Shown: positions 53,901-64,000 of the stretch, one piece after another | How the letters are laid out: each line of letters starts with the position of its first letter | How positions within the stretch are numbered: position 1 is the first letter of the stretch | Notes under the pieces: model-generated | The model's input: only the letters and a program-made list of their open reading frames with translations | Told to the model about the DNA's origin: nothing | Database searches by the model: none | Position numbers and translations under genes: made by a program | Source: Hydractinia symbiolongicarpus | Taxonomy: Eukaryota > Cnidaria > Hydrozoa > Anthoathecata > Hydractiniidae | DNA: 64,000 bases | Direction: 5' to 3' | Assembly: GCF_029227915.1 (NCBI RefSeq) | Contig: NC_079885.1 | Span: forward strand, 3,720,001-3,784,000

Positions 53901-56677
53901 CGCAACAGTTGTAACTCAAACGGATTTATACCGCCAGAAAGTCAATAAAATGTAGTCTTTGAAACTGTTCCTATTTATTCAGCGCGTGCTAACGGCCAGG
54001 ATTGGTCCCACAGTAAAAAATGACTTATTTTATATACATTTTTAAGTGAAGGGCTACCATAGGGCCGAGTGTAATCGCTAAATTCCAGAAATCATGTCAA
54101 ATTAAGAAGAATGTTATTCCTTGGAATCCAATTGGCTCATTTATCACATTTATAAGGTCACAGTACAGAATCACTTCAATTAAGTCCCACTGTCAATCGT
54201 TTCACTGTCAAAAGTAATACAACTTAGTAATATCGGAAAAAAATCACTAAGTACATGTTGGTGCGAATACGTGACGCAACCGATGTAACTTAAGCGGATT
54301 GACACCGTTAGAAAGTCAATGAAATGTAGTTTTTGAAAATGTTTCTATTTCTTCAGCGCGTGCTAACGGCTAGGATTGGTCCCACAGTACAAAATGACTT
54401 ATTTATCTAAACTTTTATATAAAGCGCTACAACAGCGCCCAGTGAAATCGGTAAATTCCAGCAATCATGTCAAATTAAGAAGAATGTTATTTCTTAGGTC
54501 CAATTTTTTCACTGATCACATTTATAAAGTCACAGTCCAAAATCAGTACAATTAAGTCCCACAGTCAATCGTTTCACTGTTAAAAGCTATACAACCTAGT
54601 ATAACCAGAAAAATATCACTTAATACATGTTGGTACAAATATGTGACGCAACCGTTGTAACTCAAACGGACTGATACCGTTAGAAAGTCATTGAAATTTA
54701 GTTTTTAAAACTGTCTCTATTTCTTTAGCGCGCGATAACGGCCAGAATTGGTCCCACAGTAAAAAATGACTTATTTTATTTAAATTTTTAAATGAAGTGC
54801 TACCACAACGCCCAGTGTAATCGCTGAGTTCCGGCAATCATTTCAAATTAAGAAGAATGTTGTTCCTTGGAGTTCAATTGGCTCATTTATCACATTTATA
54901 AGGTCACAGTCCAGAATCACTGCAATTAAGTCACACAGTCAATCGTTTCACTATTAAAAGCGATACAACTTACTAATAACGGAAACAAATCACTAAATAC
55001 ATGTTGGTACGAACATGTGACGCAACTGTTGTAACTCAAACGGATTGAAACCGTTAGAAAGTCAAGGAAATGTAGTTTTTGAAAATGTTTCTATTTCTTC
55101 AAGGCGCGCTCACGGCTAGGTTTGGTCCCACAGTACAAAATGACTTATTTATCTAAACTTTTAAATAAAGCGCTACCACAGCGCCCAGCGAATCGGAAAA
55201 TTCCAGCAATCATGCCAAATTAAGAAGAATGTTATTCCTTGGGTTCAGTTGTCTCATTTATCACATTTTTGAGGTCAAAGTCCAAAATCAGTTCAATTAA
55301 GTCCCACAGTCAATCCTTTCACTGTTAAAAGCAATGCAACCTAGTAATATCGGAAAAAAATCATTAAGTACTTGTTGGTACGAATATGTGACGCGACAGT
55401 TGTAACTCAAACGGATTTATACCGACAGAAAGTCAATAAAATGTAGTCTTTGAAACTGTTCCTATTTATTCAGCGCGTGCTAACGGCCAGGATTGGTCCC
55501 ACAGTAAAAAATGACTTATTTTATATACATTTTTAAGTGAAGGGCTACCATAGGGCCGAGTGTAATCGCTGAATTCCAGCAATCATGTCAAATTAAGAAG
55601 AATGTTATTCCTTGGAATCCAATTGGCTCATTTATCACATTTATAAGGTCACAGTACAGAATTACTTCAATTAAGTCCCACTGTCAATCGTTTCACTGTC
55701 AAAAGTAATACAACTTAGTAATATCGGAAAAAAATCACTAAGTACATGTTGGTACGAATACGTGACGCAACCGATGTAACTTAAGCGGATTGACACCGTT
55801 AGAAAGTCAATGAAATGTAGTTTTTGAAAATGTTTCTATTTCTTCAGCGCGTGCTAACGGCTAGGATAGGTCCCACAGTACAAAATGACTTATTTATCTA
55901 AACTTTTATATAAAGTGCTACCACAGCGCCCAGTGAAGTCGGTAAATTCCAGCAATCATGTCAAATTAAGAAGAATGTTATTTCTTAGGTCCAATTTTCT
56001 CAATTATCACATTTATAAAGTCACAGTCCAAAATCAGTTCAATTAAGTCCCAGAGTCAATCGTTTCACTGTTAAAAGCGATACAACTTAGTAATATCGGA
56101 AAAAAATCACTTAATACATGTTGGTACGAATATGTGACGCAACCGTTGTAACTCAAGCGGATTGATACCGTTAGAAAGTCATTGAAATGTAGTTTTTGAA
56201 TCTGCCTCTATTTCTTCAACGCGCGCTAACGGCCAGGATTGGTCCCACAGTAAGAAATGACTTATTTATCTAAATTTTTAAATGAAGTGCTACCACAACG
56301 CCCAGTGTAATCGCTGAGTTCCGGAAATCATGTCAAATTAAGAAGAATGTTGTTCCTTGGAGTTGAATTGGCTCATTTATCACATATATAAGATCACAGT
56401 CCAGAATCACTTCAATTCAGTCCCACAGTCAATCGTTTCACTGTTAAAAGCGATACAACTTAGTAATATCGGAAACAAATCACTAAATACATGTTGGTAC
56501 GAACATGTGACGCAACTGTTGTAACTCAAACGGATTGACACCGTTAGAAAGTCAATGATATGTAGTTTTTAAAAATGTTTCTATTTCTTCAACGCGCGCT
56601 CACGGCTAGGTTTGGTCCCACAGTACAAAATGACTTATTTATCTAAACTTTTAAATAAAACGCTACCACAGCGCCCA
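50931..56677 (+). repeat. Satellite block with 7- and 4-monomer spacing, leading to the insertion site
   Basis: The variant AGGGCTACCATAGGGCCGAG is at 51441, 54050 and 55541, giving steps of 2609 bp (7 monomers) and 1491 bp (4 monomers). A linked variant, GCGCGCTCACGGCTAGGTT, marks the monomer type that ends at the transposon. The array breaks inside the variable box at GCGCCCA (56671-56677). A 63-codon open frame at 52156-52347 is in satellite and is not a gene. Confidence 0.8.
56674..56677. repeat. Left target-site duplication CCCA
   Basis: CCCA precedes CACGTTCG and is repeated immediately after CGAACGTG at 61309. The undisturbed monomer (for example near 53690) reads GCGCCCAGCGAATCGG with one CCCA. 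A 5-bp duplication GCCCA, usual for RAG/Transib elements, is possible if the final G of the right end is counted as duplicated target. Confidence 0.8.
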
Positions 56678-56724
56678 CACGTTCGTTTACGGTATGAAAT
56701 TAATTATGCGCATGCGTCAAATTT
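56678..56724 (+). repeat. Left terminal inverted repeat, 12-bp-spacer type
   Basis: From the tip: CACGTTC (56678-56684), a 12-bp spacer (56685-56696), AAATTAATT (56697-56705), then GCGCATG at 56708-56714. The first 11 bases are identical to the right end. The block beginning GAAATTAATT at 56696 matches the right end at 23 of 29 positions, but is 11 bp closer to the tip here. This end lies at the 3' side of the recombinase gene. Confidence 0.88.
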
Positions 56725-57183
56725 TGTTTTGATTAAAAATAGTAACCATAGCAAACGTGGCTGTGCTGAATACAGCTGAAATGTGTATGGTTTATTTTGA
56801 TTAAAAGGAAGCCCTATGGACGAATTTATAACCGTTGAGAGAGATTGTCGCATTATCTGATCCGTGGTCACTCTAGACAAACGTTTTTAATTTGTTCGGA
56901 GCCGGAAAGCGCTGTGAACGTAGCTGAGAATACAAACTTGAAAAATTAGCCAAATTTTTCTCTGTGAGTTTGTCGACTTCGTTTACAAAGAGAAAAATTT
57001 CTTATGGGCTATGCATGGTATATTTGAAGTTTCAAAGGATCTAACTTTTTAGCAAATATATCCCTGGTATCCTACCACTTTTTTAAAGTGATGTAAATGT
57101 GTTTTGAAAATGTCCTAAATTCACTCAAATCTATTGGTGGGCTTGATGTGGAAAAGAGGTAGGTACATGCTTCCAAACTGTTT
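56725..57183 (-). other. Transposon 3' non-coding region
   Basis: AT-rich sequence between the poly(A) signal and the left inverted repeat. No reading frame with RAG2-like kelch motifs, and no RNA gene, is seen. Confidence 0.5.
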
Positions 57184-57189
57184 TTTATT
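57184..57189 (-). promoter_or_regulatory. Poly(A) signal AATAAA
   Basis: AATAAA on the minus strand starts 32 bases after the stop codon of the RAG1-like gene, a plausible place for 3'-end formation. It is a short motif in AT-rich DNA, so support is modest. Confidence 0.5.
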
Positions 57190-57221
57190 TATATTTTTCA
57201 TACAAAGCTAGCTATTAACAT

Positions 57222-57538
57222 TCATTGTAAGGCAAGCTTCCTTTTTCTGGGCTTTACAACAGGCTTTAAAGTCTTTGCCGAAGGATTTACTCTTGCATGA
57301 TGCTCTTTTAACATGCTGAATAGTCTCCGCCAGTTTGGTTTCATTCGACAGAACTGTCTGTGCAAGTCATTAAACTCAGAATGAATACCCTCACCACCTT
57401 GCTCGTTATATAATCCTAGCCCCACTCTCCATTTTGTGATAAACTGCAATACGTGATCTTCTGTCATGTGCAGTTTGGGAGTAATGCGTACATTTGGCCA
57501 AGTCGAACGGAAAAAGCTCAGCTCTTTGATTGCACCAT
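57222..57538 (-). CDS. Exon 10: HxxxxH zinc ligands, catalytic glutamate, C-terminus
   Basis: Acceptor CATTTTAG at 57539; the exon runs to the stop at 57224-57222. VRITPKLHMTEDHVLQFI supplies H-x4-H, matching H937/H942 of RAG1. Twenty-one residues after the second His comes NEQGGEGIHSEFN, whose first glutamate after GG (57392-57390) is the likely third catalytic residue (E962 in human RAG1). The tail ends with a basic KPRKRK, possibly a nuclear signal. Confidence 0.88.
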
Positions 57539-57612
57539 CTAAAATGTTGAAGAAAAGTATATACCTTACTATAAAAGAGAATTTAAAGTGTATGATTTTA
57601 AGGCCAACTCAC

Positions 57613-57805
57613 CAAGTTGACTTAGTTTTTCATCATCAAAGTTATTTGAAGAATTCATCAAATTATGACACAAAGAGTATTTCATGAATAACTTCTTAAA
57701 ATCACTACACGCCTTAATTGCTTCTTCATGAATTTCTGTGCCAACAAATGCAAGCTGGCATACAATTATTGGCAACGAATTGCACAGTTTGATTAGGTTT
57801 TTATG
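57613..57805 (-). CDS. Exon 9: core segment before the catalytic glutamate
   Basis: Acceptor CAATTTTAG at 57806, donor G|GTGAGT at 57612; 193 nt. It encodes HKNLIKLCNSLPIIVCQL and FKKLFMKYSLCHNLMNS. Frame and splice phases fit exons 8 (3' part) and 10. Confidence 0.8.
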
Positions 57806-57895
57806 CTAAAATTGAAAAAATATATATGATGAATACATAAAGTCCTTGATACACATGCAAAAAAGTAAACTTGTAAAATTTGTTAATTTTCTTAC

Positions 57896-58044
57896 TTGTA
57901 ACATTTTGTGAACATGATTTCCCACAAAACTTTTACCATGATAAGCCTGTCGCTCGACATTTAATGAACACAATGTTTCATCCAATTTTTTAACACATTC
58001 TTATCCAGTGGATTCTCCTGAGTAAGATCATCTATTTGTTTTAA
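57896..58044 (-). CDS. Exon 8: core segment with a -1 frameshift
   Basis: Acceptor TTTACAAG at 58045, donor CAA|GTAAGA at 57895. The exon is 149 nt although both flanking junctions are phase 0, so one base is missing. The first part reads LKQIDDLTQENPLDKNVLK. The second part is in the next frame: ERQAYHGKSFVGNHVHKML. The change falls at a run of six A (57991-57986), so a base lost from a homopolymer is the simplest cause. Confidence 0.75.
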
Positions 58045-58131
58045 CTTGTAAAAATAAAGAAAATGGGTATGTTAGTTCATATGTATATATAACTGAAAGT
58101 TAAAAATAAATATATATAAATTTTAACTAAC

Positions 58132-58461
58132 TCTTTTATTCAGTTTATCATTAAGGTAAACAAGTCTTGGGTCATAAATTCGTCTTATTTCTGTTTCATT
58201 TTCAGGATTATTCAAGATTGGAGTGTTGGTTGCATCGTGAACTAATTCGATTTTGCTTCGGATGTCTGCAACAACATATTCTAGCCGGCTTTTTTCTTGG
58301 TGACTTTGAATATACTTATCAAAACTTTTTTGTCGAAGCAATGTATTATTTTTTGCAAGGGCAGCTGCTATTTTTACATCCGTTGTGTGACAGAAATCCT
58401 CAAGCATATTAAAAAACTTCAAGTATGTTCCCAGTGATATCTGAAGTGCAGGTAGTGCAAC
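58132..58461 (-). CDS. Exon 7: helical insert of the catalytic core
   Basis: Acceptor ACAATAG at 58462, donor AGA|GTTAGT at 58131; 330 nt, exactly 110 codons. VALPALQISLGTYLKFFNML continues VPIDQ from exon 6 and parallels the RAG1 segment with IDALHCDIGNAAEFYKIF. A long charged, probably helical stretch follows (KSFDKYIQSHQEKSRLEY). Confidence 0.78.
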
Positions 58462-58536
58462 CTATTGTAAATAACTATTGTAAGTTTACAGTAAAAGAAA
58501 ATGTATTGAGCTGTATAAAACAATGTATATACACAC

Positions 58537-58739
58537 CTGATCAATTGGCACATTTAACATCCTATCATCGATAACATTGTTACACTGTTTAGCAAGCTTA
58601 ATATCACTTCCAAGACTTTTAAACTGTTCCAAATCATTCTTCAGTGATTCTAACGTTCGTAGAGATGATATTCCTCTTTCAGTCAAGGACAGTTGCATCT
58701 TTTGTTTGGTAGTTGTGCAGAAAAGACAACAATGGCGAC
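58537..58739 (-). CDS. Exon 6: CxxC half of the RAG1 zinc site
   Basis: Acceptor CTACAG at 58740, donor CAG|GTGTGT at 58536; 203 nt. The split glycine codon joins exon 5 to GRHCCLFCTTTKQKM; C-x2-C here equals C727/C730 of human RAG1. The rest, up to MLNVPIDQ, is the insert between the second aspartate and the final glutamate. Confidence 0.82.
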
Positions 58740-58824
58740 CTGTAGATGCGTATATAATTAATAGTTATGTGTTTCAATTATGTTTAAGGATAACACGATA
58801 TATATATTACAAAGTTGACTTTAC

Positions 58825-58901
58825 CATTTGCTCCAGTTATTCCATAGACATGACAAAGAAATTCATAATCACCAAACACAAATACACGGATTTTTTGTTG
58901 C
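58825..58901 (-). CDS. Exon 5: second catalytic aspartate (FGDYEFLCHVYG)
   Basis: Acceptor TTTTAG at 58902, donor G|GTAAAG at 58824; 77 nt, in phase with exons 4 and 6. The aspartate at 58870-58868 in RVFVFGDYEFLCHVYG matches D708 of RAG1, in the same context, followed by a glycine-rich turn (GITGANG). Confidence 0.82.
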
Positions 58902-58973
58902 CTAAAACATAAATATTTATATGATTTTTTAAACATTTTTTGGACATTTCCCTTCATAAAATATTTGACTTAC

Positions 58974-59190
58974 TTCCACATTGCAATTTGCAGCTCATCA
59001 ACTTGACTTTTGAATTTTGCCAATCCAATTTTTAAATTAGCTCTGTAATCTTTTGCTTCAAAGATGCTATATACTACAGTATTACTTTTGCTGTTAGGTT
59101 TGTCAGTATTGCATGCTTGGTATGAAATCTTAAAGGATCCACCTCCATGATCACCTCCAATTTTAATATGTATTTCATTCTGTACCGTAT
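58974..59190 (-). CDS. Exon 4: first catalytic aspartate (GGDHGGGSFK)
   Basis: The frame reads IHIKIGGDHGGGSFKISYQ and continues to FEAKDY and LQIAMWK. The aspartate at 59152-59150 corresponds to D600 of human RAG1 by position and context. The donor is AA|GTAAGT at 58973. The only AG near the expected start is at 59192-59191, which gives a phase one base off relative to exon 3. In-frame sequence also extends upstream of it, so either a 1-base indel is present or the boundary is wrong. Confidence 0.8.
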
Positions 59191-59260
59191 CTTTTGCAAC
59201 AAACAGATTTGTTTTAAAATATATAATTTGATATATAGTATCTAATTGTAGTTAACTTAC

Positions 59261-59473
59261 TTGTTTAAGCAATTAAGATATCGTAGGATGTTTGCCGTTA
59301 GGTCCTTAACATACCCCCAGGGCGCTGTACGGACCTCACGGCAGCTCTTCTCACTGTTAACGTTAAATGTGAAAGGAGTGTCTTCTACTATTATGTCGTC
59401 ACCAGACCAATCATTAAAAATTTTCTGTTGCTTACCATGTGAAGCTGTTATGATATTGAATGTTTTTAACCAC
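59261..59473 (-). CDS. Exon 3: pre-catalytic region of the RAG1-like protein
   Basis: Acceptor TTTCAAG at 59474, donor AA|GTAAGT at 59260; 213 nt. The AGG codon split across intron 2 restores MARWLKTFNI, supporting the junction. The exon ends in APWGYVKDLTANILRYL, typical of the segment before the first catalytic aspartate in RAG1-like proteins. It leaves two bases (AA), which do not match the phase needed by exon 4. Confidence 0.75.
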
Positions 59474-59484
59474 CTTGAAAAAAA

Positions 59485-59510
59485 TTATATATATATATAT
59501 ATATATATAT
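59485..59510. repeat. (TA)n microsatellite in intron 2
   Basis: Alternating TA run next to the exon 3 acceptor tract; ordinary intron simple repeat. Confidence 0.9.
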
Positions 59511-59520
59511 TTCAGTCTAC

Positions 59521-59810
59521 CTAGCCATTGTCTTTAATTTTTCCCATGGTACTCCCATATCAACTTTCACAGCAACCATCGATTCAGGTGAAATAACAGA
59601 TGCTGACAAATCGCTCTCCTTTAAAATCTGTGATCGTTCTTCACTGCCAAATGTTTTTAGTAATTTAACAGTTTGTTGAGCTATTGACTGCGATGAATTC
59701 CCTGATATTGTACTGATGTGGCCCCTAACATACAAATTTCTGTTGTATACAGTTCTACTGGTCACATTTCCTTCTTTGACTGCCTTGGGGGTAGACGTGA
59801 ACACCAGTGG
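59521..59810 (-). CDS. Exon 2: nonamer-binding region of the RAG1-like protein
   Basis: Acceptor TTTTAAG at 59811-59812, donor AG|GTAGAC at 59520; 290 nt, leaving two bases of a split codon. It continues directly from GGPR of exon 1. Residues such as SSQSIAQQTVKLLKTFGSEE and VPWEKLKTMAR resemble the helical part of the RAG1 nonamer-binding and dimerization region. In RAG1 this region grips the AT-rich nonamer of the recombination signal (established knowledge). The GGRPR signature is shortened to GGPR here. Confidence 0.75.
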
Positions 59811-59916
59811 CTTAAAATAGAATACATATAAAATGTAAATATATGTATATAAATCATTAATGTACACATCTATGGTATACTTTAATCGAATAAAGAAAAC
59901 AACAGAATAATTGTTT

Positions 59917-59930
59917 ATATATATATATAT
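59917..59930. repeat. Short (TA)n run in intron 1
   Basis: TATATATATATAT run near the donor of exon 1. Confidence 0.8.
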
Positions 59931-59944
59931 TGTTTAACTCTTAC

Positions 59945-60841
59945 TCTTGGCCCACCACTCTTAAATTCAATAGTTCTGTCTTCAGAACGTGCCATCTTTT
60001 GCTTTATTATGTGAAGAGCAGCATCTTCATATTCTCGTGGTATAACACTGCTTTGCTCGTCAATTTTGAAAATATCGTTTAAAGATGTCTCTGATCTACT
60101 ACTTGAAAAACTTGTTTGTAAGCCATTACATACTTTTTCATGTTGGTTTATTTCAGTTACAGTTAGAGCCTCTCCACAATCTTTTCTACATTTTAGTTTT
60201 AAGCACTGTATCATTGATATTATATTTTTTGAAACTTTGAGCGACTCAATTTTTATAACAAAAAAACAAGTGGGACATAAACTCTCAATTTATTGCTTTC
60301 CCAGTATTTTTGGCGCCAAGCAATTATAACAAAAAGTGTGTTCACATGTTGTTGTTACAGGTTTTCGCAAAATATTGTGACACAGCTGACAACGACAGAG
60401 GCTAACATGAGGGTTAAGACTAGTGTTTAAGTGTTCCAGTGTTAATTCTGGGGGAACGACATCTTTGGTGTTTTCGAAAATGTTTAACAAAATTCGTGTC
60501 CATATTGGTTTTTTTGCTGTTGGCCTGCCTGATTTGTGTTTCTTCGTTTTACGTCCTCTCTTAAGTTTTTCGAAGCAGTAAGGACAATTTTCAGAGTGTG
60601 GATGCCAATGAATTTCATGCATTACAGAAGTTGTTGTTCTCTTTTCACTATGTGTCAGTTTTGAACAGCATTTGAGGCACATTTTTGTTGGATGTATCTC
60701 ATTTGAGTCTTGGTCAACATCAATAAAAAAGCATTTTAATAATCTGCTTTTATGTTTAGATACTAAAACTGTGTCCTTTGATAGCAATTGTCCACAAAAT
60801 CTGCAAAGTCTGTTTATTTTCTCAGAGTGATATTCAGCCAT
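59945..60841 (-). CDS. Exon 1: N-terminal zinc region, RING finger, C2H2 finger (interrupted by TAA)
   Basis: Starts at ATG 60841-60839 with A at -3 and G at +4. Visible zinc ligands are C13/C16, C55/C58 and the RAG1 hallmark WHPHSENCPYC (residues 79-89). A basic stretch follows (93-111, RGRKTKKHKSGRPTAKK). The RING finger is C151-x2-C154-x11-C166-x-H168-x2-C171-x2-C174, continuing after the stop as CPTC (189-192). The RAG1-type finger after it has CLKLKC and HEKVC. Codon 184 is TAA (60292-60290), between the sixth and last pairs of RING cysteines, and the frame on both sides is the same. The exon is 897 nt and ends with GGPR at a GTAAGA donor, where the GGRPR of the RAG1 nonamer-binding domain is expected. 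Confidence 0.85.
60290..60292 (-). other. In-frame premature stop (TAA) inside the RING finger
   Basis: CAA TAA ATT separates the upstream 183 codons from downstream codons that are in the same frame and still encode the last RING cysteine pair and the C2H2 finger. No GT...AG pair around it would splice it out. It is therefore read as a nonsense mutation, or less likely a sequence error. Confidence 0.8.
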
Positions 60842-61250
60842 ATTGGATAAATTTTAAGAGAAAACCATGATATAAAAAGTCTTCAAAAAATGTGGTACAA
60901 AAAAGTGGTAGGGGTTAAAGTAAGGTTTGTAGAAATAAAGTAAAGTCTGTAGAACGTTTTACATTAATTTATAAGTCGCCAAAAATTTTATTTTTATAGA
61001 TATAATGATTCAAAGTAGCTCAAATTTCGTAAACAGAACATGGAAATTTTCCCGCTTTTTTTTAGTGTTTGTTTACATATCGAAATGTATCAAAGGTCAT
61101 TTTTAAGTACCTTGGTCACTCTTTCTATGAAAATATTATGTTTAAAATGCCCAGCTTCATTTTAAATGTAGTTTTGGAGCTTAAATGTAATGGGTGGTAG
61201 TGTGACCCTAGCTAGCGTTATCATACAAAAAAACAAGATGACGTAATCTG
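60842..61250 (-). other. Transposon 5' non-coding region (presumed promoter and leader)
   Basis: No open frame of note lies between the right inverted repeat and the start codon. It must contain the promoter if the gene is expressed, but no clear TATA or initiator element is recognised. Confidence 0.5.
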
Positions 61251-61308
61251 AAATTCCGCACATGCGCGAAATTAATTTCCACTCCCGTGGTAGCGGCAAA
61301 CGAACGTG
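61251..61308 (-). repeat. Right terminal inverted repeat, 23-bp-spacer type
   Basis: Read inward on the minus strand: CACGTTC (61308-61302), a 23-bp spacer (61301-61279), AAATTAATT (61278-61270), then GCGCATG (61267-61261). The extra 11 bp, relative to the left end, lie between the common CACGTTCGTTT tip and the shared GAAATTAATT block. This end lies upstream of the recombinase start codon. Confidence 0.88.
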
Positions 61309-61312
61309 CCCA
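61309..61312. repeat. Right target-site duplication CCCA
   Basis: Partner of 56674-56677; the satellite continues as GCGAATCGG. The base before it (G at 61308) can be read either as the last base of the inverted repeat or as the first base of a 5-bp GCCCA duplication. Confidence 0.8.
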
Positions 61313-62047
61313 GCGAATCGGTAAATTCCAACAATCATGTCAAATTAAGAAGAATGTTATTTCTTGGGTCCAATTGTCTCGCTTATCACATTTATAAGGT
61401 CACAGACCAAAATCAGCTCAATTAAGTCCCACAGTCAATCGTTTCACTGTTAAAACTGATACAACCTAGTATTACCAGAAAAATATCACTAAATACATGT
61501 TGGTACGAAAATGTGACGCAACCGCTGTAACTCAAAGGGACTGATACCGTTAGAAAGTCATTGAAATGTAGTTTGGGAAACTGCCTCTATTTCTTCAACG
61601 CGCGCTACCGGCCAGGATTGGTCCCACAGTAAAAAAAGACTTATTTATCTAAATTTTTTAATGAAGCGCTCCAAACAGCGACCAGTGTAATAGCTGAGTT
61701 CCGGCAATCATGTCAAATTAAGAAGAATGTTATTTCTTGGGGTCCATTTGGCTCACTTATCACATTTATAAGGTCACAGTCCAAAGTTACTTCAATTAAG
61801 TCCCAGAGTCAATCGTTTCACTGTTAAAAGCGATACAACTTAGTAATATCGGAAAAAAATCACTAAATACATGTTGGTACGAATATGTGACGCAACCGTT
61901 GTAACTCAAGCGCATTGATACCGTTAGAAAGTCAATGAAATGTAGTTTTTAAAAATGTTTCTATTTCTTCAGCCCGTGCTAACGGCTAGGATTGGTCCCA
62001 CAGTACAAAATGACTTATTTATCTAAACTTTTATATAAAGCGCTACC

Positions 62048-62250
62048 ACAGCGCCCAGTGAAATAAGAAAATACATTATGGTACGAATATGTGACGCAAC
62101 CGTTGTAACTTAAGCGGATTGACACCGTTAGAAAGTCAAGGAAATGTAGTTTTTGAAAATGTTTCTATATCTTCAACGCGCGCTCACGGCTAGGTTTGGT
62201 CCCACAGTACAAAATGACTTTTTATCTAAACTTTTAAATAAAACGCTACC
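62048..62250 (+). repeat. Truncated satellite monomer (203 bp step)
   Basis: ACAGCGCCCA at 62048 recurs at 62251. The junction at about 62064 joins CCCAGTGAAAT to AAGAAAATACATTATGG, skipping roughly 170 bp of the monomer. Confidence 0.8.
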
Positions 62251-64000
62251 ACAGCGCCCAGCAAATCGGTAAATTCCAGCAATCATGTCAAATTAAGAAG
62301 AATGTTATTCCTTGGGTCTAGTTGTCTCATTTATCACATTTATGAGGTCAAAGTCCAAAATCAGTTCAATTAAGTCCCACAGTCAATCCTTTCACTGTTA
62401 AAAGCAATGCAACCTAGTAATATCGGAAAAAAATCATTAAGTACTTGTTGGTACGAATATGTGACGCAACTGTTGTAACTCAAACGGATTGACACCGTTA
62501 GAAAGTCAATGAAATGTAGTTTTTGAAAATGTTTCTATTTCTTCAGCGCGTGCTAACGGCTAGGATTGTTCCCACAGTACAAAATGACTTATCTATCTAA
62601 ACTTTTATATAAAGCGCTACCACAGCGCCCTGTGAAATCGGTAAATTCCAGCAATCTTGTCAAATTAAGAAGAATGTTATTTCTTGGGTCCAATTGTCTC
62701 GCTTATCACATTTATAAGGTTACAGTCCAAAATCAGTTCAATTAAGTCCCACAGTCAATCGTTTCACTGTTAAAACTGATACAACCTAGTATTACCAGAA
62801 AAATATCACTAAATACATGTTGGTACGAAAATGTGACGCAACCGCTGTAACTCAAAGGGACTGATACCGTTAGAAAGTCATTGAAATGTAGTTTGGGAAA
62901 CTGCCTCTATTTCTTCAACGCGCGCTACCGGTCAGGATTGGTCCCACAGTAAAAAAAGACTTATTTATCTAAATTTTTTAATGAAGCGCTCCAAACAGCG
63001 ACCAGGGTAATAGCTGAGTTCCGGCAATCATGTCAAATTAGGAAGAATGTTATTTCTTGGGGTCCATTTGGCTCACTTATCACATTTATAAGGTCACAGT
63101 CCAAAGTTACTTCAATTAAGTCCCAGAGTCAATCGTTTCACTGTTAAAAGCGATACAACTTAGTAATATCGGAAAAAAATCACTAAATACATATTGGTAC
63201 GAATATGTGACGCAACCGTTGTAACTTAAGCGCATTGATACCGTTAGAAAGTCATTGAAATGTAGTTTTTAAAACTGTCTCTATTTCTTTAGCGCGCGAT
63301 AACGGCTAGGTCTGGTCCCACAGTAAGAAACGACTTATTTATCTAAATTTTTAAATGAAGTGCTACCACAACGACCAGTGTAATCGCTGAGTTCCGGCAA
63401 TCATGTCAAATTAAGAGGAATGTTATTCCTTGGACTTCAATTGGCTCATTTACCACATTTATGAGGTCAAAGTCCCAAATCAGTTCAATTAAGTCCCACA
63501 GTCAATCCTTTCACTGTTAAAAGCAATGCAACCTAGTAATATCGGAAAAAAATCATTAAGTACTTGTTGGTACGAATATGTGACGCAACAGTTGTAACTC
63601 AAGCGGATTTATACCGCCAGAAAGTCAATAAAATGTAGTCTTTGAAACTGTTCCTATTTATTCAGCGCGTGCTAACGGCCAGGATTGGTCCCAGAGTAAG
63701 AAATGACATATTTATCTAAATTTTTATATGAAGTACTACCACAGCGCCAAGTGAAATCGGTAAATTCCAGCAATCACGTCAAATTAAGAAGAATGTTATT
63801 TCTTTGGTTCATTTGCCTCACTTATCACATTTATAAGGTCACAGTCCAAAATCAGTTCAATTAAGTCCCACAGTCAATCGTTTCACTGTTAAAAGCTATA
63901 CAACCTAGTATTACCAGAAAAATATCACTTAATACATGTTGGTACGAATATGTGACGCAACCGTTGTAACTCAAGCGGATTGATACCGTTAGGAAGTCAT

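What the first reader, a model, noticed from the sequence alone, without database searches (positions are those of the whole stretch)
56678..61308. 12/23-like asymmetric spacing in the two transposon ends
Seen: both ends begin CACGTTCGTTT and both have a second block (GAAATTAATT, two bases, GCGCATG; 23 of 29 matches), but this block sits 11 bp farther in on the right end. With heptamer CACGTTC and AAATTAATT as nonamer-like element, spacers are 12 bp (left) and 23 bp (right). Known: vertebrate recombination signals pair a 12-bp with a 23-bp spacer. Inference: this RAG1-only element may use, or have invented, a 12/23-type pairing rule. The exact 12 and 23 depend on choosing AAATTAATT rather than GAAATTAATT (11/22); the 11-bp difference, one DNA turn, does not.
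Basis: partly seen in the sequence, partly recalled or inferred. Interest (0 to 1): 0.93.

Follow-up and report, generated by a model that had tools for sequence, protein, structure and literature searches.

The report
Chapaev transposon with 12/23-like ends
This is a broken copy of a Chapaev-type DNA transposon, a distant cousin of the enzyme that rearranges our antibody genes; its two ends carry the same recognition pattern set about one DNA turn further in on one end than on the other, an arrangement kept in divergent sister families and reminiscent of the 12/23 signals of antibody genes.

Summary
In detail: in the 4631-bp element at 56678-61308 the second end block lies 11 bp further in on the right end. 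The family copies found in the host genome that keep their termini share this, so it is not a private indel.

Six more Chapaev families of the same genome (transposases 37-52% identical) were examined. The shift is exactly 11 bp in four of seven families, 10 bp in one, ambiguous in two (10 or 4; 1 or 9). The long end is on the gene's 5' side in 5 of 5 clear cases. Long-spacer sequences are near chance identity (29%) while their length stayed fixed, which suggests selection on spacing.

Best reading: asymmetric bipartite ends that a RAG1-fold transposase uses in unlike pairs without RAG2. The pairing is inferred, not shown. Exact '12' and '23' depend on where the box is said to start.

The parts
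56678..61308 (.). Chapaev-type transposon, 4631 bp, inserted in a ~373-bp satellite array
   Evidence: Exact boundaries from satellite units without the insert and a 4-bp TSD
56674..56677 (+). Left target site duplication CCCA
61309..61312 (+). Right target site duplication CCCA
56678..56684 (+). Heptamer-like terminus CACGTTC of the gene-3' (short-spaced) end; shared block CACGTTCGTTT runs to 56688
56695..56707 (+). A+T-rich box TGAAATTAATTAT, positions 18-30 of the short end
56708..56714 (+). GCGCATG motif, positions 31-37 of the short end
61302..61308 (-). Heptamer-like terminus CACGTTC of the gene-5' (long-spaced) end; shared block runs to 61298
61268..61280 (-). A+T-rich box of the long end, positions 29-41; two private base changes in this copy
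61261..61267 (-). GCGCATG motif, positions 42-48 of the long end
57222..60841 (-). Transposase gene, ten predicted exons (60841-59945, 59810-59521, 59473-59261, 59190-58974, 58901-58825, 58739-58537, 58461-58132, 58044-57896, 57805-57613, 57538-57222); broken
   Evidence: splice sites read from sequence, no transcript data
60506..60742 (-). RAG1_imp_bd (PF12560) match, taken as the Chapa zinc finger
   Evidence: residues 34-112; equation with Chapa inferred from PMC4411706
60266..60394 (-). RING finger
   Evidence: residues 150-192
60290..60292 (-). In-frame stop codon within the RING: this copy is broken
57896..58044 (-). Exon 8, with a frameshift
59521..59810 (-). Exon 2, region after a GG.PRP motif; possible equivalent of the RAG1 nonamer-binding domain (inferred)
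   Evidence: Motif and three predicted helices at this place in relative P0001; no domain match

Best explanation
A dead copy of a Chapaev transposon. Its transposase has N-terminal Chapa and RING fingers and, by prediction on a relative, the RAG1/Transib core fold. Each end is bipartite: a CACG.. heptamer-like terminus where cutting would start, and an A+T-rich box (RGAAWTTAA-like) usually followed by GCGCATG. The box lies about one helical turn further in on the end next to the gene's start than on the other end. Most likely the transposase contacts both parts, reaching the box at the near position on one end and at the far position, on the same DNA face, on the other, so that an unlike pair of ends is synapsed and like pairs are disfavoured: a 12/23-like arrangement without RAG2. 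Shown: membership, bipartite ends, asymmetry, polarity, fixed spacer length in four families. Inferred: contact with the box, synapsis of unlike pairs, any rule.
Against: No pairing test. F4 is tied between offsets 10 and 4, F7 scores best at 1 and second at 9, neither significant. The short spacer is still 45% identical (19/42). No NBD match by sequence or profile. Protostome RAGL are thought insensitive to TIR asymmetry (PMC7204232). All seven families come from one genome.
Confidence: 0.6

Rival explanations
1. Host-factor model: the second block is mainly a transcription-factor or promoter element (GCGCATGCGC resembles the NRF1 site, recalled) that sits differently at the promoter end; the transposase reads only the terminal ~15 bp.
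For: GCGCATGCGC is the best-kept part, 54/60 identical on each end among F1, F2, F3, F5. In ProtoRAG the second conserved block TR5 is a YY1 site that affects transcription and precise cutting (PMC7481187), and ~15-17 bp of TIR are thought to suffice in RAGL (PMC7204232).
Against: The A+T box, not GCGCATG, is what all 14 ends keep (G and A at box positions 2 and 3 in 14 of 14); GCGCATG is off its place in F4 and has no clear copy at the 5' end of F7. A promoter does not explain the fixed position on the gene's 3' end.
Confidence: 0.2
2. Frozen accident: the asymmetry was inherited from one ancestral element and has no function.
For: All families share one ancestor and live in one genome; a single event can explain the shared 11 bp. 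The most lenient neutral setting gives probability 0.042.
Against: Long spacers have turned over to 29% identity without net length change in four families; the other five settings give 0.0045 or less for both lengths unchanged (assumed star tree, indel rate and length).
Confidence: 0.15
3. A true RAG1L/RAGL transposon that obeys the V(D)J 12/23 rule.
For: RAG1-like N-terminal fingers and RAG1-like predicted core fold.
Against: 4-bp not 5-bp TSD; no RAG1-core sequence match; no RAG2L seen and no room for it; DUF1280 core.
Confidence: 0.02
4. Private indel or chance similarity in this copy.
For: None found.
Against: Same spacing in the other F1 ends that keep the terminus and significant offsets of 10-11 in four sister families.
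Confidence: 0.01

Closest known systems
Chapaev superfamily, Chapa+RING subgroups (Kapitonov & Jurka 2007, as cited in PMC4411706; CMC/CMCT clade)
   Same: CAC..GTG ends, 4-bp TSD, Chapa then RING then distant DDE core, C(2)C and H(4)H motifs
   Different: A conserved one-turn end asymmetry was not in the papers I could see; the original reports are not held
Transib with 12/23-like ends (Transib5 of Drosophila, some Anopheles Transibs; as told in PMC8355894)
   Same: Heptamer-like CAC end plus second element at 12/23-like spacing; no RAG2; same core fold
   Different: 5-bp TSD, no Chapa/RING, different transposase family
ProtoRAG of amphioxus (PMC8289069, PMC7481187)
   Same: Bipartite asymmetric TIRs; second block at fixed spacing; same core fold
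   Different: 27/31 spacers (4-bp shift), 5-bp TSD, needs RAG2L, CACTATG and TR5 (YY1 site)
Vertebrate RSS with RAG1/RAG2
   Same: CAC heptamer, A+T-rich second element at about positions 20 and 31, 11-bp difference
   Different: Nonamer sequence differs; no RAG2 here; no pairing rule tested
N-RAG-TP of Aplysia (as told in PMC8355894)
   Same: Transposon with a RAG1 N-terminal-like part; RSS-like TIRs claimed (recalled)
   Different: Not compared; the paper is not held. It may itself be Chapaev-like (guess)

Membership tests
Chapaev | 3- to 4-bp TSD | tested here: met
   4 bp in 13 of 14 insertions of seven families, 3 bp in one; hallmark from PMC4079192 (passages)
[quoted passage not shown]
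   Window and sister families; decayed copies L016 (CAAG) and L055 right end (CATG) noted
Chapaev | Chapa finger followed by RING | tested here: met
   PF12560 residues 34-112, RING 150-192; that PF12560 covers Chapa is inferred from PMC4411706
Chapaev | C(2)C, LH and H(4)H motifs of the core | tested here: met
   C(2)C and H(4)H seen in F1-F7 alignment (F3 aligns poorly at C(2)C); the LH column reads LQ in the window copy but LHI in relatives
Chapaev | Clusters with named Chapaev transposases in a tree | not tested
   No Repbase sequences on hand
RAGL (RAG1L-RAG2L) transposon | 5-bp TSD | tested here: not met
RAGL (RAG1L-RAG2L) transposon | Convergent RAG2L gene (kelch + PHD) | tested here: not met
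   Transposase gene fills 57222-60841; 544 and 467 bp remain at the ends. No kelch/PHD search was run on the whole element
RAGL (RAG1L-RAG2L) transposon | RAG1 core by sequence | tested here: not met
   No RAG1 hit for residues 300-961 up to E 10; with the profile only a marginal C-terminal stretch, i-E 7.8. The predicted fold is RAG1-like
Transib | 5-bp TSD | tested here: not met
12/23 rule (works like) | Heptamer and A+T-rich second element at two spacings differing by ~11 bp | tested here: met
   11 bp in 4, 10 bp in 1, ambiguous in 2 of 7 families
12/23 rule (works like) | Unlike ends pair, like ends do not | not testable with these tools
   Needs an excision assay
12/23 rule (works like) | Nonamer-binding domain reads the second element | tested here: inconclusive
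   GG.PRP motif and three helices at the right place; no domain match

The most novel reading that the evidence does not exclude
A 12/23-like pairing rule is older than RAG2 and older than the split of Chapaev from Transib/RAG1: Chapaev transposases, through an NBD-like region, synapse one short-spaced and one long-spaced end, and the V(D)J rule is a retained feature of the whole RAG1-fold group.
Probability: 0.28. Interest if true: 0.92.

Novelty: new variant of a known kind. Interest (0 to 1): 0.72.

Why it matters
The origin of the 12/23 rule, which keeps antibody-gene assembly in order, is open: ProtoRAG ends are 27/31, protostome RAGL are thought insensitive to asymmetry, and 12/23-like ends are told only for some Transibs (PMC8289069, PMC7204232, PMC8355894). 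A Chapaev group with near-identical recent copies (F2 copies 99.6% alike), a RAG1-fold transposase, no RAG2 gene seen and a conserved one-turn end asymmetry would be an independent system for asking whether unlike-end pairing needs RAG2, and whether asymmetry is ancestral or arose more than once.

Tried and rejected
RAG1-only / RAGL membership: rejected on 4-bp TSD, no RAG2L seen and no RAG1-core sequence match.

5-bp TSD (GCCCA) in the window: considered because the preceding satellite base and the element's last base are both G; set aside because the other insertions match at 4 bp and not 5.

'AAATTAATT' as a true nonamer: not kept as a unit; the shared block is longer in this family and the box reads RGAAWTTAA-like across families, so 10/21, 11/22 or 12/23 are all possible names.

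Relatives outside this genome: scans of viral contigs and genome contigs gave none. The one viral-contig hit to the end pattern (L001) looks like chance: one end only, another spacing, no transposase looked for.

Genome-wide count of end spacings (pattern CACGNTNNTTN{10,40}GCGCATGCG), similarity search for right ends, and a PF06918 survey: not completed (tool busy). Seven families is a lower bound drawn from one search, which scored 48 of 637 candidates. Of the 12 regions fetched, L053 (F2-like, right end missing), L058 and L059 (F3-like, 3' ends not found) gave no end pair and were left out of the offset counts; their 5' ends put GCGCATG at 42, 41 and 42. L049, L051 and L055 are second copies of F2, F4 (internally deleted) and F5.

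The neutral simulation (20,000 runs per setting) uses a star tree and assumed indel rates and lengths, and distances worked out by hand from the 29% identity; a rough guide only. For 'same 5'-3' difference' it gave 0.046 to 0.0003.

Papers not seen: Kapitonov & Jurka 2005 (PMC1131882, not held); 10.1093/molbev/msad232 (query failed). Literature searches answered; I saw in them no report of a Chapaev end asymmetry, but they show listings and starts of abstracts only, and Repbase Reports are not in the library. Two further searches failed, so the NRF1 site stays recalled.
Full report
WHAT IS IN THE WINDOW. The window is a ~373-bp tandem satellite with one insertion, 56678-61308. Because the satellite repeats, empty sites exist: a junction-spanning query gave 161 aligned stretches (the two half-units flanking the element included), three of them the variant that fits the right flank. 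They fix the element: 4631 bp, CAC...GTG, flanked by CCCA. The window lies in a 480.9-Mb, 76-contig genome. The named close relatives of the protein are from Hydra vulgaris. Genome and contig sizes would suit a hydrozoan such as Hydractinia; that is recall and inference.

THE OBSERVATION. The two ends, read inward, are CACGTTCGTTT-7 bp-GAAATTAATT-AT-GCGCATG (left) and CACGTTCGTTT-18 bp-GAAATTAATT-TC-GCGCATG (right). The 11-bp difference and the 23/29 match are correct. Counting the window, the genome search gave 8 left-end matches and 5 right ends (pattern search). The spacing is 7 bp in 7 of 8 left ends (L017 matches only from base 25 on) and 18 bp in 5 of 5 right ends; some of these are duplicated loci, and the right-end pattern itself required both blocks within 20 bp. 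In the four other right ends the second block is 19 of 19 identical to the left block; the window's right end has a private two-base change. The difference is therefore older than this copy.

WHAT THE ELEMENT IS. One gene runs on the minus strand, 60841 to 57222, in ten predicted exons. Read through, it gives 961 residues: a RAG1 importin-binding match (PF12560), a RING finger, and DUF1280 (PF06918). The N-terminal part also finds RAG1 in the PDB sequences (9jpu_A, residues 29-235, E 5.3e-13), but residues 300-961 find no RAG1 or Transib even at E 10; the one hit is IS621 at E 1.2. Kapitonov & Koonin 2015 (PMC4411706; passages and section 6) give Chapa finger, RING and a distant core as the make-up of two Chapaev subgroups. 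The Chapaev hallmarks told in PMC4079192 (passages), 3- to 4-bp TSD and CAC/GTG termini, are met: exact 4-bp TSDs in 13 of 14 insertions of seven families, two of them with identical flanks and so probably one duplicated locus, and 3 bp in the other. The window copy is dead: a stop in the RING (60290-60292), a frameshift in exon 8, and a phase misfit at exon 3/4. A protein search gave 34 relatives (7988 candidates scored), named ones from Hydra, Patiria, Holothuria, Lytechinus, Haliotis and Branchiostoma. At E 1 or better DUF1280 matches 30 of 34, PF13923 (RING) 16 and PF12560 12; several members are fragments.

SISTER FAMILIES. A search of the host genome with the protein gave 89 matches. I fetched 12 regions and found both ends of six more families, F2-F7, with boundaries set by homology breaks or TSDs. 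The transposases of F1-F7 are 37-52% identical pairwise over F1-anchored columns. In a tree, F1, F2, F3, F5 and F6 fall in one group (support 92/92) with two Hydra proteins (P0005, P0012) and P0001/P0002, mostly unresolved inside; F4 and F7 pair (100/99). If there was no horizontal transfer, the group is at least as old as the split from Hydra.

END GEOMETRY. Family F1 is represented by copy L005/L006 in these scans. An ungapped offset scan between the 5' (gene-start) and 3' ends gave the best offset 11 in F1, F2, F3 and F5 and 10 in F6; 0 of 2000 shuffles reached each of these scores. F4 is tied between 10 (A+T box) and 4 (GCGCATG); F7 scores best at 1 and second at 9; their scores are reached by 249 and 102 of 2000 shuffles. 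Cross-family comparisons of 5' with 3' ends among F1, F2, F3 and F5 gave 11 in 12 of 12 ordered pairs; pairs with F4 or F7 scatter. The longer spacing is on the gene's 5' side in 5 of 5 clear families. With the box placed by eye in F4, F6 and F7, it starts at 18 on the 3' end in 7 of 7 and at 29 (F1, F2, F3, F5), 28 (F4, F6) and 27 (F7) on the 5' end; box positions 2 and 3 are G and A in 14 of 14 ends. GCGCATG, or a one-base variant, starts at 31/42 in F1, F2, F3 and F5, 31/41 in F6, about 33/37 in F4, and 33 with no clear partner in F7 (counted).

IS THE SPACING SELECTED? Among F1, F2, F3 and F5 the long spacer (positions 11-28) is 31/108 = 29% identical, near the 25% of chance, while on the same end the heptamer is 83%, the box 62% and GCGCATGCGC 90%; the short spacer (11-17) is 19/42 = 45%. 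Sequence has turned over but length has not. A rough star-tree simulation gives unchanged lengths of both spacers in four lineages with probability 0.042 at the most lenient setting, 0.0045 at another and 0.0022 or less at the other four. This favours constraint without proving it.

MECHANISM. Known: RAG needs CAC, reads the nonamer with its NBD and pairs 12 with 23; ProtoRAG prefers unlike TIRs with 27/31 spacers and loses activity when these are shortened (PMC8289069; abstract, passages and section 12). I infer that the Chapaev transposase works alike: the heptamer-like terminus sits in the core, the A+T box is reached at two distances one turn apart so that it stays on the same DNA face, and an unlike pair is the preferred synapse. 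The third box base is at position 20 on the short end and 31 on the long end of F1, F2, F3 and F5, which is where RSS nonamers begin; the count depends on which base is called first. GCGCATGCGC may be a host-factor site (NRF1-like, recalled), as TR5 of ProtoRAG is a YY1 site (PMC7481187, passages).

NOVELTY. Asymmetric ends are known for ProtoRAG and, in 12/23 form, told for some Transibs (PMC8355894, passages, which also calls the oyster C. virginica TIRs asymmetric in a legend). Chapaev elements are known. A conserved one-turn asymmetry across Chapaev families did not show in the listings; the original Chapaev and N-RAG-TP reports were not seen, so priority is open. I rate it a new variant of a known kind.

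Noticed in passing
window 1-56677 and 61309-64000: The rest of the window is one ~373-bp satellite array, all units found in the same orientation (161 of 161 aligned stretches); another F1 copy and a duplicate sit in the same satellite at C11:28.49 and 28.71 Mb.
   Followed up: partly
G000 C11:28491614-28501451 and 28711726-28735145 (L005-L008): Two F1 copies with identical flanks are 9.8 and 23.4 kb between their ends instead of 4.6 kb, so they probably hold nested insertions.
   Followed up: no
L050 and L051: Family F4 has at least 15 near-identical matches of one exon; L051 is a 2.8-kb internally deleted form of the 4.5-kb L050 that keeps both ends, as expected of a non-autonomous element.
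   Followed up: partly
window 56732-56750 and the 3' end of F2 (L048): Just inside the short end F1 and F2 share TGGTAACCATAGC (one base differs in the window copy), which looks like an RFX X-box (recalled).
   Followed up: no
L052, L054, L055 flanks: Families F3 and F5 also sit in or beside a satellite-like repeat of about 200 bp shared between C7, C6 and C4.
   Followed up: no
Pfam PF06918 (DUF1280): This 'unknown function' family is, by the predicted fold of P0001, part of a RAG1-fold transposase core in Chapaev-type elements.
   Followed up: partly
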